The translations under genes and the position numbers were made by a program. From positions 1 to 17,853 of the forward strand of contig JAGHTV010000156.1 in the NCBI GenBank assembly GCA_018065165.1: a DNA stretch of 17,853 nucleotides, read 5' to 3'. Origin of the DNA: Candidatus Sodaliphilus fimicaballi. GTDB lineage: Bacteria > Bacteroidota > Bacteroidia > Bacteroidales > Muribaculaceae. This document shows, one piece after another, positions 1,372-7,135 of this stretch. The notes beneath the pieces are model-generated. The model was not told the DNA's origin and made no database searches. It saw only the letters and a program-made list of their open reading frames with translations. Numbering within the stretch: the first letter of the stretch is position 1; every line of letters starts with the position of its first letter.

Positions 1372-1375
1372 TTTC

Positions 1376-1453
1376 TTTAAGGACGCTACGCTTATCAGAG
1401 CGGTCGCTTTAAGGACGCTACGCTTAAAGGACGCTACGCTTTAAGGACGGAGC
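1376..1453. repeat. Left repeat array beside the four-helix gene
   Basis: Three close copies of AAGGACGCTACGCTT start at 1379, 1411 and 1427, and a fourth partial copy starts at about 1443 (AAGGACGGAGC). Read on the minus strand, the copy at 1427-1445 is CTTAAAGCGTAGCGTCCTT. It differs at only two positions from CTTAAAGCGCAGCGTTCTT at 1908-1926 on the plus strand. The left array is therefore an inverted, diverged counterpart of the array on the other side of the small gene. Confidence 0.75.
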
Positions 1454-1489
1454 TAATACTCCTATAAGACATAAAGACACGACTAAATA

Positions 1490-1843
1490 ATGATAAATTA
1501 TAAGAATCTTTTATTCTGGCAACGAAGCATGGTATTTGTTGCTGATATTTATAAGAAGACGATGTCCTTCCCTAGGGAAGAGCAATTTGGTCTGTCGGGA
1601 CAAATAAGAAGAGCTGCAGTATCAGTTCCAACAAATATTGCAGAAGGAAGTGGTCGTGATAGCAAAAAAGATTTCGCTCATTTTTTGCGTATTTCAATTG
1701 GTTCGGCATGTGAAGTTGAATGCGAACTAATGATTGCAAGAGATTTGGGGTACATCAATGAATCTGAATCGTCAGTTTTACTTAAGGAAATAAAAGAAAT
1801 TAAGGAGATGATAGACTCCTACAAAAATAAATTGTTGGAATAA
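1490..1843 (+). CDS. Four-helix bundle protein (23S rRNA IVP / S23 family)
   Basis: This 117-residue protein has the signature of the four-helix bundle family first found as ORFs inside 23S rRNA intervening sequences and related to Avd, the accessory protein of diversity-generating retroelements. Visible hallmarks are LSGQIRRAAVSVPTNIAEG (about residues 34-52), GRDSKKDF, then the helix IGSACEVECELMIARDLGYI (about 70-89), and a final Lys/Glu-rich helix. Family members form basic pentameric barrels thought to bind nucleic acid; no enzymatic activity is known. Length is normal for the family. The gene is visibly AT-richer than the beta-helix gene and lpxB, and it sits alone between repeat arrays of opposite orientation, which suggests an acquired cassette. 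It is not in an rRNA gene here, and no reverse transcriptase or template repeat is visible. I found no convincing promoter. The ATG at 1490 follows an in-frame stop and fits the family N-terminus. Confidence 0.88.
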   Translation: MINYKNLLFWQRSMVFVADIYKKTMSFPREEQFGLSGQIRRAAVSVPTNIAEGSGRDSKKDFAHFLRISIGSACEVECELMIARDLGYINESESSVLLKEIKEIKEMIDSYKNKLLE

Positions 1844-1869
1844 AACGGCTTGTCCTTTTGAGAGTAAAT

Positions 1870-1987
1870 CTTAAAGCACAGCGTTCTTAGAGCCACCTAG
1901 TGGCGTTCTTAAAGCGCAGCGTTCTTAGAGCCACCTAGTGGCGTTCTTATAGCGCAGCGTTCTTAAAGCCACCTAGTGGCGTTCTTA
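1870..1987. repeat. Right repeat array, three 38-base direct repeats
   Basis: A 38-base unit is repeated in register, with unit starts (CAGCGTTCTT) at 1879, 1917 and 1955; the copies differ at only a few positions. Each unit carries the small hairpin GCCAC-CTA-GTGGC and the segment CTTAAAGCGCAGCGTTCTT or a variant of it. There are no unique spacers, so this is a tandem repeat rather than a CRISPR array. It ends 10 bases before the lpxB start codon and is inverted relative to the array at 1376-1453. Confidence 0.85.
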
Positions 1988-1997
1988 AATTAATAAT

Positions 1998-3127
1998 ATG
2001 AAATACTTTATTATTGCAGGTGAGGCTAGTGGTGATCTTCATGCGTCGCAGCTGATGAAGTCAATTATTGCTGCCGATGCACAGGCTGAGTTTGAATTTC
2101 TGGGTGGCAATCTTATGGCTAATGTGGCCAATAAGATGCCCATCATTCACTACAGCTCGATGGCCTATATGGGATTCGTCGAGGTGGCAAGCACTTAGGC
2201 TCAATCATGGGTTTCATGAAGATAGCCCGCAAAGCCATCGACCGTCAGAAGCCCGATGCCGTGATTCTAGTCGATTATCCGTCGTTCAACCTCAAGATTG
2301 CCAAGTATGCTCATAGCAAGGGCATCAAGGTGCACTATTTCATCTCGCCCAAGGTGTGGGTGTGGAAAGAATGGCGTGTTAAGGATATCAAGAAGTATGT
2401 CGACCACATGCACTGCATACTCCCCTTTGAGGTCGATTTCTATAAGCGACACAACTACGATGTCAACTATGTAGGCAATCCCACAGTAGGCGAGATAAAC
2501 GCCGCTATTGCCTCGATGCACAGCGAGCAGGAGTTCAAGCGTCTCAACGGGCTCGAGGACAAGCCCATCATTGCCCTTGTGCCAGGCTCACGCATCAAGG
2601 AAATCAACGACAACTTGCCTTCGATGCTCGAGGCTGCAGCTCACCACCCCGAGTATCAAGCCATCATTGCTGCGGCTCCTAGTGTTGACACTCGCGTCTA
2701 TTACAATATACTCGATCCTATCAATAGCGATGCTCTACTGGTCACTAACCAGACTTGGGAGCTCGTGCATCACGCTCGAGTGGCACTTGTCACAAGTGGC
2801 ACTGCAACGCTCGAGACAGCCATGCTGGGCACACCACAAGTGGCCTGCTACCGCATGAACGGCAGCAAGTGGCTGTACAAGTTCTACCGAGGCCTGCTCA
2901 AGGGCGACTATGTGACATTGCCCAATTTGGTTGCTGACGAACCCGTTATCCCCGAGTTGCTGTTGCACTACTGCAATGTAGATAGCATCGACCAGCACTT
3001 GTCAGCGCTGTTGCAAGATGGTGATGAGCGTAGTGCAATGCTAGCGGGATATGACCGTATGTCGGCTCGCCTAGGCACAAACGACTGCTGTGCAACAGCT
3101 GCACAGTTGATTGTAAATTCGCTGTAA
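1998..3127 (+). pseudogene. lpxB: Lipid-A-disaccharide synthase, broken by one frameshift
   Basis: LpxB (GT19) joins UDP-2,3-diacylglucosamine and lipid X to make the lipid A disaccharide at the inner membrane. The first frame (1998-2198) encodes MKYFIIAGEASGDLHASQLM and ends in TAG. The rest continues in the -1 frame, with an internal ATG at 2207. Adding one A near 2188-2191 restores the sequence VAKHLGSIMGFMKIA and one frame of exactly 377 codons (376 residues), normal for Bacteroidetes LpxB. All landmarks survive: GEASGD, VDYPSFNLKIAK, YFISPKVWVWKEWRVK, LVPGSRIKEI, VTSGTATLETAMLGTP and TLPNLVADEPVIPELL. A change this clean in a gene normally needed for lipid A suggests either a sequencing/assembly error or a very recent mutation. 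No slippery heptamer supports programmed frameshifting. The start lies 10 bases after a tandem repeat array. Identity is certain; whether the break is real is not. Confidence 0.9.
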
Positions 3128-5101: not shown

Positions 5102-5656
5102 TCAGTCAAGACCAAGGACGATGTCGATGCAAGCATTTACATCGGCAATGTCAACAGCGCCGTCGCCGTTGATGTCACCCTTCTTGCCAACAGGAGCTGC
5201 GGGAGTTGTACCCACGAAGTTAACCTTGATGATTTGCTCAAGGCTTTCCATCATGTCGATGTCGATGTTTACGCTCATGGCTGTATCATTAAAGTCACAG
5301 TCCAGAACAATTGGTACTTCACCAAGGAATGGGCCCATCCAGAATTCAACACCAGGAAGATCTCCCTCAGTAATATTTACGTTGTTATTATACTTGATGT
5401 TTGTGAAACCATATTCTTGTTTACCTTCAAGTTCGTGTATAGAAATATTGCCTACTCCGATAACGCCATCCTCACTTGTGAGGCAAAAGTTTTTAAGGTC
5501 AAAATTTACTTTACCATTAACAACCTCTGCTTGAATCGTTGTTTCCATTGATGTTCCTATTCCGTTAATGGAAACGGTAAGTTTTCCTGTGTACTCTGTT
5601 GCCATAGCTGCCATTGAAGTGATAGCCGCAGCGAGCATAATGATAATTTTTTTCAT
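5102..5656 (-). CDS. Secreted calycin-like protein with C-terminal dockerin
   Basis: The product has 184 residues. A signal peptide (MKKIIIMLAAAITSMAAMA) is followed by a lipocalin/calycin-like domain (about 20-150; begins TEYTGKLTVSINGIGT, with NGKVNFDLKNF and VGNISIHELEG), a beta-barrel family frequent in Bacteroidales secreted proteins. A short linker (TTPAAPVGKK) leads to one dockerin-type segment, GDINGDGAVDIADVNACIDI, at about 160-180, with the D-x-N-x-D-G spacing of an EF-hand-like calcium loop. Only one of the two usual dockerin repeats is present. No cohesin is encoded in the window, so the docking partner is unknown. It is the last gene of the 9101-5102 operon, 27 bases after the longer dockerin protein, with which it shares both the calycin start and the dockerin end. 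Confidence 0.83.
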   Translation of the reverse strand: MKKIIIMLAAAITSMAAMATEYTGKLTVSINGIGTSMETTIQAEVVNGKVNFDLKNFCLTSEDGVIGVGNISIHELEGKQEYGFTNIKYNNNVNITEGDLPGVEFWMGPFLGEVPIVLDCDFNDTAMSVNIDIDMMESLEQIIKVNFVGTTPAAPVGKKGDINGDGAVDIADVNACIDIVLGLD

Positions 5657-5683: not shown

Positions 5684-7135
5684 TTATTTCTTGTTGAGAA
5701 TGATATTAATGATAGCATTTATATCAACAATATCAATTGTCTTGTCGCCATTAAGGTCTGAGCGACTGATGTATTTCTCGTCTTTCTCTTGGTTGAGAAT
5801 GATCTTTACAACAGCGTTGATGTCGGCAATATCTACTGTCTTGTCGTCGTTAACATCGCCTGGGATAGTTTCTTCAGCCTTATGCATTACAACAGTGTAA
5901 ACATCAGTAGTGAGGAGGTCGCCCGATACTGCATATACATAGGCAATATAGCTGTCTTCAGTCTCAACTACTGTGCAACCAGCTGATGCGCTTGCACCAT
6001 TGTATGCTACAGCAAAGTCGTCTGCCACGGGAGCCTCGGTTGCGGTACCCAGGTCGCAAGTGCCGTCGGTGAACGAGAGTTGCTGTCCCTTGTAGGTAAC
6101 GCTTGTAACCTCAGCTTTGTAAACGAGTGTAAGGTCGTCAATAAAGATTTGATCACCCTTTGAACCTTTACCTGGAGTAGCGTTGGTCGACATTGTTACA
6201 AGAATTGCGTCAGCATTCTTGTTTGCATCTGTTGTGTGGTTGTATACAAAAGGAATTGAAAGTTCTGTCCAATTGCATACTGCTATTGTATTGTTACTTG
6301 CACGAGCTACTACATTGGTATATTCCTTGTCTTCGGGGTCTTGGTAATAGGTTTTCCCCGCAATGCTGGTGTCGTCAAATGCAACAGCATTGAATGTTGC
6401 GTAAGGGTAATTTTTATTTGCTGTCCCCTGTGAAAATTTCACCCATACCTTTATTGAATCAGGTCGTGCGGGAAGTTTCATATAAAATGGATTTCCGTCT
6501 TTGTCTGTTCTTGTTGATGTGCGATCCATTTCACTGTGATTATCAGTGTTGGTAGCTGTAGCACTATTGGCTTTAAGTTGGCCATTAGTCATTGTACCAT
6601 TTGCGACAATCTTGGCAATACCGAGATTTACTTCACTTGAACTGATTAGACCACTATATGAACCTGTAGACCCGGGACGAGTGTTAGTGTCTTTTACAAA
6701 AGTGCTTTTAGCCATAGACGCTAGGCCTCCATACGCACTTTTGAAACCGTGCCAGTACTGTGGCTCACCGCTCGATGCTGTCCAAGTCTCGAAGTCACTG
6801 TTGGGGAGTTGGAATGATTTGTCCACATTCTCAAAGTAGTAGGTTGTACCATCGGCAAGTGTCATGTTGATGACAGCATACGCGCTGTCATATCCGTAGT
6901 GTGCTACAACCTGTGCTGCAGCTGTCTTGTTGACCAGTGTTGTTATGCCTTTTACAGTGTTTACTGCACAATCGGCAACTGTTACACCGTTTAGGGTTAC
7001 TGTGTTGTCTTCGATGGTTGCTGTTACACCAGTCTGTGTAGTTGCATTGTTTACTGTGAGTGTTCCTGTGTAGTTTGTAGCCATCACAGTCATTGAAACC
7101 ACACTAGCAGTTACTAAAGTGAAAATCTTCTTCAT
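5684..7135 (-). CDS. Secreted calycin, PCMD and dockerin multidomain protein
   Basis: The product has 483 residues. After a signal peptide (about 1-19) comes a calycin-like segment (20-105; NYTGTLTVNN, like the start of the 5102-5656 product). Residues about 110-345 match the PCMD (putative carbohydrate metabolism) type: QLPNSDFETW, PQYWHGFKSA, then DSIKVWVKF and QIFIDDLTLVYK at the end. A short Ig-like beta segment (about 346-420) follows, and then a two-repeat dockerin (about 425-483) with GDVNDDKTVDIADINAVV and SDLNGDKTIDIVDINAII; in both loops the Gly of the usual DG is replaced by Lys or shifted. The domain calls rest on pattern memory; PCMD function is not established. The gene lies 21 bases after the outer-membrane barrel gene, in the same operon as a second PCMD lipoprotein. 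An exported carbohydrate-binding or scaffold role is an inference. Confidence 0.82.
   Translation of the reverse strand: MKKIFTLVTASVVSMTVMATNYTGTLTVNNATTQTGVTATIEDNTVTLNGVTVADCAVNTVKGITTLVNKTAAAQVVAHYGYDSAYAVINMTLADGTTYYFENVDKSFQLPNSDFETWTASSGEPQYWHGFKSAYGGLASMAKSTFVKDTNTRPGSTGSYSGLISSSEVNLGIAKIVANGTMTNGQLKANSATATNTDNHSEMDRTSTRTDKDGNPFYMKLPARPDSIKVWVKFSQGTANKNYPYATFNAVAFDDTSIAGKTYYQDPEDKEYTNVVARASNNTIAVCNWTELSIPFVYNHTTDANKNADAILVTMSTNATPGKGSKGDQIFIDDLTLVYKAEVTSVTYKGQQLSFTDGTCDLGTATEAPVADDFAVAYNGASASAGCTVVETEDSYIAYVYAVSGDLLTTDVYTVVMHKAEETIPGDVNDDKTVDIADINAVVKIILNQEKDEKYISRSDLNGDKTIDIVDINAIINIILNKK

What the first reader, a model, noticed from the sequence alone, without database searches (positions are those of the whole stretch)
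1376..1987. Four-helix-bundle gene enclosed by complementary inverted repeat arrays
The IVP-type gene at 1490-1843 is flanked by arrays that are reverse complements of each other. The 19-base core at 1427-1445 (minus strand) and at 1908-1926 (plus strand) differs at two positions; in RNA one difference would give a G-U pair and the other an A-C mismatch, so pairing is largely kept. Classic IVP genes live inside 23S rRNA intervening sequences whose ends also form a stem. Here the same gene type has a similar layout outside rRNA. It could be a free-standing mobile cassette, or a transcript that folds around its own ORF and is bound by the protein. The AT-rich base composition supports acquisition.
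Basis: partly seen in the sequence, partly recalled or inferred. Interest (0 to 1): 0.7.

Follow-up and report, generated by a model that had tools for sequence, protein, structure and literature searches.

The report
Mobile gene cassette inside bacterial operons
A small gene of a family first known from ribosomal RNA genes sits between two mirror-image arrays of short repeats; in other bacteria such a gene and its arrays come, go and are swapped together between neighbouring genes, which points to a little-recognised kind of mobile cassette whose transcript would fold into a long hairpin.

Summary
An IVP/S23 four-helix-bundle gene (1490-1843) lies between complementary repeat arrays (about 1375-1455 and 1869-1989). 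It is not a local oddity: 88 of 148 unique IVP loci have 5' and 3' flanks that are inverted copies of each other, against 14 of 799 other genes in the same loci. The arms are mostly arrays of 7-8-nt units that differ between loci; this window's unit is 16 nt. Loci with arms sit mainly between co-directional genes (70 of 87; controls 233 of 428). At one Flavobacterium junction IVP presence changes at least 14 times over 88 species; arm type changes once on the IVP gene tree but 12 times on the flanking-gene tree; one pair has 99% and 98% identical flanks but different cassettes. There, gene plus both arms behave as one unit. For the window itself this is inferred from three relatives. The predicted RNA folds as a long stem around the ORF, like a 23S rRNA IVS but in an mRNA; evidence for RNA-level selection was negative. 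How it moves is unknown. Ten paper searches showed no earlier description.

The parts
1375..1455 (+). left (5') repeat array; the part aligned to the right array is 1375-1437
1490..1843 (+). IVP/S23-type four-helix-bundle gene, 117 aa
   Evidence: PF05635 E 7e-39; TIGR02436 130.7 bits
1869..1989 (+). right (3') repeat array, three copies spaced 38 nt, inverted relative to the left array; aligned part 1900-1968
1372..1998 (+). whole cassette as inferred: everything between the stop codon of the upstream gene and the start codon of lpxB; predicted RNA long stem with the ORF in the loop
   Evidence: MFE -201.2, z -7.6; the boundary is inferred from a Flavobacterium cassette swap, not shown in this genome
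1999..3127 (+). downstream neighbour lpxB (reading frame broken near 2190-2207)

Best explanation
An operon-embedded IVP cassette: one IVP/S23 four-helix-bundle gene plus two flanking inverted arrays of short repeats, occupying the junction between two co-directional genes. Shown by comparison at one Flavobacterium junction, with supporting data elsewhere: gene and both arms are inherited and exchanged as one unit, and the site gains, loses or swaps it. Predicted: read-through transcripts fold the arms into a long stem with the IVP ORF in the loop, the layout of a 23S rRNA intervening sequence but in mRNA. Inferred, not shown: the stem is processed (RNase III is the likely enzyme) so that neighbouring messages are released, which would make the insertion tolerable; and the IVP protein, one relative of which is described as five assembled four-helix bundles, recognises its own arms. 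The arms are probably kept alike at least partly by DNA-level copying, because wobble pairs are not favoured. How it moves is unknown; the cassette holds no gene but the IVP gene. That the window's locus is such a cassette is inferred from its anatomy and three relatives.
For: Inverted arms at 88 of 148 IVP loci against 14 of 799 control genes; direct orientation 8 of 148 and 13 of 799 (Fisher 5e-68). Set fetched after the threshold was fixed: 12 of 19 viral contigs (10 of 17 if three with the same arms count once) and 2 of 6 cyanobacterial plasmid loci, the six being picked from 27 records. Matches at lag 7, 14 and 21 are 0.589, 0.573 and 0.522, at other lags 0.25-0.35. Both neighbours co-directional in 70 of 87 loci with arms, 41 of 59 IVP loci without, 233 of 428 controls (p 4e-6 for the first against the last). 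Different-site pairs with arm similarity >=0.45 rise from 9 of 1637 to 7 of 23 as protein similarity rises; 0 of 2000 permutations reach 7. Flavobacterium site C: at least 14 changes of IVP presence on 88 rows; the two arms agree in type in 36 of 36 cassettes scorable on both sides, of 37; arm type changes once on the IVP tree and 12 times on the flanking-gene tree; L238/L245 flanks identical at 235 of 237 and 235 of 240 positions, the stretch between at 337 of 520 in a forced alignment. Second junction: IVP in 6 of 30, all six with arms over the threshold; 6 of 30 have only 27-39 nt. Window's site: IVP in G000 and G042, none in G004 and G022. Protein under purifying selection at site C, median dN/dS 0.12 over 231 usable of 595 pairs. 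Folding: 82 of 88 cassettes pair at least half of the 5' arm with the 3' arm.
Against: 60 of 148 IVP loci do not pass the arm threshold, among them one of three full-length ones in the window's genome (L010, score 23). Of 41 loci printed for nine recurrent junctions only 18 pass. G-U-keeping differences between arms are not favoured: 83 kept to 102 broken, 28 to 49 at site C. The flanking-gene tree is a quick tree with 9 of 34 inner branches unsupported, so the figure of 12 is soft; the L238/L245 pair does not depend on it. Homologous recombination could explain the swaps without active mobility. One search does not correct for relatedness of the genomes. The window's repeat also occurs without an IVP gene in its genome. 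No clean insertion with a target duplication was found; one apparent empty site (L265) proved to be an assembly gap.
Confidence: 0.72

Rival explanations
1. The arms are ordinary intergenic repeat elements (REP-like or simple heptamer arrays) that are common in these genomes; IVP genes merely happen to lie in repeat-rich junctions and carry no causal link.
For: The window's repeat occurs at 7 other places in its genome. Lag-7 arrays occur at 9 of 210 co-directional, 1 of 49 convergent and 1 of 66 divergent junctions without IVP. IVP-less hairpins exist at sites C and E.
Against: Other genes in the same loci rarely have inverted flanks (14 of 799). IVP-adjacent junctions are richer in arrays (29 of 123, p 2e-7). 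At site C arm type follows the IVP gene tree better than the flanks.
Confidence: 0.1
2. The cassette is not mobile as such; it is exchanged by homologous recombination in the flanking genes, and is kept because the hairpin works as an intercistronic processing or attenuation element, with the IVP gene a passenger.
For: Orthologous sites recur across genera. Hairpin-only versions exist at site C. In hairpin-only loci wobble-kept transitions outnumber broken ones, 11 to 4, a small sample of related species.
Against: In L238/L245 divergence starts at the cassette edge although the 237 and 240 nt of flank compared are 99% and 98% identical. Related cassettes sit at different operon sites in different genera of the window's family. 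The protein is under purifying selection.
Confidence: 0.25
3. RNA-level retro-mobile element related to diversity-generating retroelements: the IVP protein acts like Avd with a host reverse transcriptase on the stem-loop RNA.
For: Weak profile similarity to Avd (NF033474, 21.6 bits, E 2e-4). A paper likens PF05635 to Avd (PMC10053308, passages).
Against: The Avd cut-off (80 bits) is far from met. I recognised no reverse transcriptase among the window's ORFs, by eye only. Marks of RNA copying were not looked for.
Confidence: 0.07

Closest known systems
23S rRNA intervening sequence (IVS) with S23/IVP ORF, e.g. Coxiella burnetii (PMC4990558; outline, abstract and passages)
   Same: Same protein family name; complementary ends forming a stem with the ORF in the loop; lower GC than the genome; sporadic distribution.
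   Different: Located between protein-coding genes, not in rRNA; arms are mostly arrays of 7-8-nt repeats with locus-specific sequence; RNase III processing not shown here.
TAACTGA heptamer direct repeats of Beggiatoaceae, Cyanobacteria and five Bacteroidetes (PMC4679880; outline, abstract and passages)
   Same: Intergenic heptamer arrays, many just upstream of a start codon, in partly the same groups; the main text has no 'S23', 'helix bundle' or 'intervening'.
   Different: Described as one fixed unit sequence in direct arrays (one inverted case in its main genome), with no IVP gene noted in the text searched.
G-rich heptamer repeats of Xanthomonas and Nostoc (PMC4692102; abstract and passages)
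   Same: Heptamers, in Xanthomonas many as convergent inverted pairs (70 cases in Xcc, 75 in Xac); one Nostoc repeat inside an operon.
   Different: One unit type per genus; the main text has no 'S23'.
Avd of diversity-generating retroelements (PMC10053308; passages)
   Same: Distant relative of the IVP fold.
   Different: Works with a reverse transcriptase and template repeat (recalled); family cut-off not met here.
MITE and REP elements (recalled, general knowledge)
   Same: Small intergenic inverted-repeat elements; hairpin-only versions here resemble them.
   Different: Arms have no common sequence across copies; a conserved protein-coding gene lies inside.

Membership tests
PF05635 / TIGR02436 (23S rRNA IVP, four-helix bundle) | profile score above the curated cut-off | tested here: met
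   132.7 bits against 33.8; 130.7 against 24
23S rRNA intervening sequence (IVS) | inserted in an rRNA gene | tested here: not met
   lies between two protein-coding genes; no Rfam family reaches its gathering score in 900-2700
23S rRNA intervening sequence (IVS) | complementary ends form a stem with the ORF in the loop | tested here: met
   as a predicted fold, z -7.6
23S rRNA intervening sequence (IVS) | excision by RNase III | not testable with these tools
   needs RNA from cells or an in vitro assay
Diversity-generating retroelement (Avd) | Avd profile above cut-off | tested here: not met
   21.6 bits against 80
Diversity-generating retroelement (Avd) | reverse transcriptase and template/variable repeats nearby | tested here: inconclusive
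   none recognised by eye among the window's ORFs; repeats searched only in 1200-2200
Insertion sequence / MITE | terminal inverted repeats of common sequence across copies | tested here: not met
   unit differs between loci; mainly cassettes with similar proteins share it
Insertion sequence / MITE | target-site duplication | tested here: inconclusive
   no clean filled/empty pair; L265 proved to be an assembly gap
REP / RAYT system | RAYT-type transposase gene associated | not tested
   no RAYT search was made
TAACTGA-type heptamer repeats | fixed unit sequence | tested here: not met
   many unit sequences

The most novel reading that the evidence does not exclude
IVP proteins are sequence-specific ring proteins that recognise their own arms and secure the precise spread or replacement of their cassette at operon junctions: a class of mobile element without a recognisable recombinase, of which the rRNA IVS is the special case that happened to land in ribosomal RNA.
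Probability: 0.3. Interest if true: 0.93.

Novelty: new variant of a known kind. Interest (0 to 1): 0.8.

Why it matters
IVP proteins are still called functionally uncharacterised (PMC11270868, passage); as far as I know the rRNA intervening sequences are their only well-studied setting. The operon cassettes give many further settings, a defined anatomy, and natural experiments: the same junction nearly empty, with a hairpin only, with one IVP type or with another. That makes two open questions testable: what IVP proteins bind, and how intervening sequences move. It also suggests an origin for some of the heptamer arrays that have been reported as unexplained repeats.

Tried and rejected
RNA-selection test: if the arms were kept for RNA pairing, differences between arms should favour those that keep G-U pairs. 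They do not (83 kept to 102 broken; 28 to 49 at site C), so I do not claim RNA selection. Two very long arrays (L146, L106) were left out of that count and of the lag count.

Correlation of protein and arm similarity over all different-site pairs was weak (Spearman 0.056, 23 of 500 permutations as high); the signal is confined to similar proteins.

A supposed fully empty site, L265, was an assembly gap and was dropped before the count. L255 was cut at a contig end and could not be scored. The count of changes was 14 (with L265) and 14 (without).

IVP gene distance against neighbour-protein distance at site C is only weakly correlated (0.167, 3 of 500 permutations as high). The neighbour proteins are nearly identical and give little resolution, so the DNA trees were used.

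The hairpin class is by a lenient score rule (20 shuffles, searched at fewer split points than the real sequence). 18 of the 43 no-IVP loci pass; three of these (L257, L261, L281) and L266 carry CTCTCC-type repeats and were set apart, which leaves 15. Several hairpins visible by eye do not pass (e.g. L259, L271, L294). L258 was labelled IVP2 by score; it is two fragments of a frame of the main type and was relabelled.

The script ended in an error while saving; its printed counts stand and the data file was rebuilt (148 and 88 again).

At the window's site only three relatives could be compared: of 30 loci fetched (60 of 61 genomes have the upstream gene) I found the upstream gene directly before lpxB in G000, G004, G022 and G042 only. 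In G022 the start of lpxB was recognised by eye; the contig ends 280 nt further on and tblastn gave no hit.

Rfam search of 900-2700 gave nothing above a gathering score. The phage collection had no tblastn match. Several paper searches listed only the top of longer hit lists (20 of 1,620; 20 of 24; 15 of 80; 20 of 246).

Full report
WHAT IS IN THE WINDOW. The window is contig C397 of a 2.46-Mb draft genome in 562 contigs. An IVP-type gene at 1490-1843 (PF05635, E 7e-39) lies between an upstream gene ending at 1371 and lpxB starting at 1999, all on the plus strand. The 5' flank holds three overlapping copies of a repeat (1375-1454, 16-nt period) and the 3' flank three copies spaced 38 nt (1869-1989); the two are inverted relative to each other. 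The RNA of 1372-1998 is predicted to fold with the arms paired around the ORF, z -7.6. The ORF has GC 0.35 against 0.51-0.52 in its neighbours; the arms have 0.49-0.50.

THE REPEAT SEQUENCE IS NOT IVP-SPECIFIC. The window's repeat matches 9 further stretches at 7 places in its own genome; of those contigs only C396 has a PF05635 match, nearly 4 kb away. The five places that I read look intergenic. The genome has three full-length IVP genes. The second (L011) has inverted arms of a quite different sequence (score 37); the third (L010) falls below the threshold (score 23).

THE LAYOUT IS TIED TO IVP GENES. I collected IVP loci by protein score, not by flanks: the higher-scoring ones from 149 genomes of the window's family (with stretches), the window's genome, G042, and the 80 best of 586 from a named genome collection. 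After requiring 250 nt on each side and removing duplicates, 148 remained. The 5' flank was aligned with the reverse complement of the 3' flank. 88 of 148 exceeded 31, the 99th percentile of swapped flanks (own family 50 of 66, others 38 of 82); in direct orientation 8 did. In the same loci 14 of 799 other genes exceeded it, and 13 in direct orientation. By phylum the named-collection loci give Bacteroidota 25 of 61, Acidobacteriota 5 of 5, Bacillota 2 of 2, Ignavibacteriota 2 of 2, Planctomycetota 1 of 3, Thermodesulfobacteriota 1 of 1, none of one each for Chloroflexota, Nomuraibacteriota and Fibrobacterota, and 2 of 5 without a phylum name. A set fetched later gave 12 of 19 viral contigs (three share the same arms) and 2 of 6 cyanobacterial plasmid loci; in direct orientation 2 of 19 and 1 of 6, and for L335 the direct match is the better one.

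ANATOMY. The arms are arrays with a period of mostly 7 nt: matches at lags 7, 14 and 21 are 0.589, 0.573 and 0.522, at other lags 0.25-0.35. Of 76 5' arms with a clear period 60 have 7 and 10 have 8; the consensus contains AG in 54 and CT in 11. The 5' arm has a positive GC skew on the sense strand in 73 and a negative one in 11 of 88. The unit differs between loci, even within one genome. The window's own 16-nt unit belongs to a minority type. Of 87 loci with arms and both neighbours visible, 70 lie between two genes reading in the same direction as the IVP gene, against 41 of 59 IVP loci without arms and 233 of 428 control genes (p 4e-6 for arms against controls). Recurrent junctions with IVP in different genera include thiolase/acyl-CoA dehydrogenase, PRiA4_ORF3/NA37, SdhA/SdhB and PanB/RluA (thiolase, acyl-CoA dehydrogenase, PRiA4_ORF3, NA37, the iron-sulphur domains of the SdhB-like protein and PanB named by Pfam, the other labels by my reading). 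Of 41 loci printed for nine such junctions 18 pass the arm threshold. Arm similarity between loci that share a homologous neighbour is low (7 of 45 pairs at or above 0.45), so arms at one junction differ in sequence between genera while matching within the locus where they pass.

GAIN, LOSS AND EXCHANGE. At the window's site four genomes keep the gene order: the window's and G042 have an IVP gene with different arms, G004 has a short stretch with one palindromic repeat unit and no gene, and in G022 the two genes overlap. At site C (PRiA4_ORF3/NA37) the downstream gene was found in 145 of 150 genomes of the genus of G203, the genome of the Flavobacterium saccharophilum locus L118. I fetched 90; 89 had both neighbours and 88 were kept after removing an assembly gap. 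45 have an IVP gene or its remains: 36 of the main type, 5 of a second type, one odd one, 3 decayed. 43 have none: 15 in my hairpin class, 4 with CTCTCC repeats, 2 nearly empty (13 and 17 nt), 22 others (with the corrections told below). Presence changes at least 14 times on the tree of the flanking proteins. For 37 cassettes of the main type (one of them decayed) each arm was classed by its core (CARAG or CTRAG in the 5' arm); the two arms agree in 36 of 36 cases scorable on both sides. Arm class changes once on the IVP gene tree, where both classes are clades with SH-aLRT 100, and 12 times on the flanking-gene DNA tree; both are quick trees, the second with 9 of 34 inner branches unsupported. 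L238 and L245 have flanks identical at 235 of 237 and 235 of 240 positions but cassettes of the two different classes (337 of 520 in a forced alignment), with divergence starting at the upstream stop codon and ending just before the downstream start codon. At a second junction (PanB/RluA) 6 of 30 species have the IVP gene, all six with arms over the threshold (scores 37-77); 6 others have 27-39 nt, and the rest hairpins, other repeats, another ORF or no located downstream gene. Across different sites, related IVP proteins carry related arms: 9 of 1637 pairs at the lowest protein similarity, 7 of 23 at 0.6-0.8; 0 of 2000 permutations as extreme; relatedness of the genomes is not corrected for.

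HOW IT MAY WORK. Shown by comparison at site C: the unit is gene plus both arms, and the protein is under purifying selection (median dN/dS 0.118 over 231 usable of 595 pairs, against 0.048 for the start of the neighbour). Predicted: a long RNA stem with the ORF in the loop (82 of 88 cassettes pair at least half of the 5' arm with the 3' arm; this follows partly from how they were chosen). [quoted passage not shown] Inferred: recognition of the arms by the protein; two solved relatives exist (2gsc, 2rld) and the first is described in a paper title as five assembled four-helix bundles (title seen in reference lists). Against RNA-level upkeep of the arms: differences between arms do not favour G-U-keeping changes. 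DNA-level copying between arms, or linked inheritance from a common source, fits better.

WHAT IS KNOWN. Ten paper searches, seen as listings, some capped, showed no description of IVP genes enclosed by inverted heptamer arrays in operons. Close pieces are in print: heptamer arrays whose main text does not mention S23 (PMC4679880; PMC4692102); IVP genes in cas loci, one between cmr3 and cmr2 (PMC3936711, passage), and in a CRISPR survey's figure legend (PMC10910872, passage); a four-helix-bundle gene between gmk and a nicotinic acid mononucleotide adenylyltransferase gene in two F. columnare strains (PMC5524665, passage); an IVP gene with a measured expression change in a Flavobacterium RNA-seq table (PMC5787105, passage); IVP ORFs inside rRNA insertions of CPR bacteria (PMC11270868, passage). 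Passages in PMC11637426, PMC8700078 and PMC12306157 added nothing to the mechanism. The library holds no preprints and lacks most subscription papers.

LIMITS. One genome per species, so no strain-level junctions; two Flavobacterium sites carry most of the exchange evidence; the window's own site has three usable relatives; thresholds are mine; and sequence alone cannot separate active movement from homologous recombination.

Noticed in passing
window 1999-3127: The lpxB reading frame is broken near 2190-2207; a relative (G004) has lpxB at this place too. Assembly error or a real break cannot be told apart here.
   Followed up: partly
L012, L013, L014: Longer open frames (211-262 aa) in the window's genome match PF05635 weakly (26.8-34.4 bits); possibly a separate family with a similar bundle.
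   Followed up: no
L267, L268, L289, L300, L310: A second IVP subfamily with its own arm type (TTTAAA-rich) occupies the same Flavobacterium junction in scattered species.
   Followed up: partly
L257, L261, L266, L281 (site C): A different inverted repeat (CCTCTCC...GGAGAGG type) fills the same junction in some species without an IVP gene.
   Followed up: no
L335 and L338 (cyanobacterial plasmids): IVP genes with arms between cas6 and cas4, and between the two ribonucleotide reductase genes on the opposite strand.
   Followed up: no
L134, L085, L110: These loci appear twice among the recurrent sites: an IVP cassette on each side of what looks like one thiolase gene.
   Followed up: no
window 5102-5656 and 5684-7135 (minus strand); L006: C-terminal repeats that look like dockerin-type motifs (my reading, no search); a repeat array like the window's lies next to a similar-looking frame in L006.
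   Followed up: no
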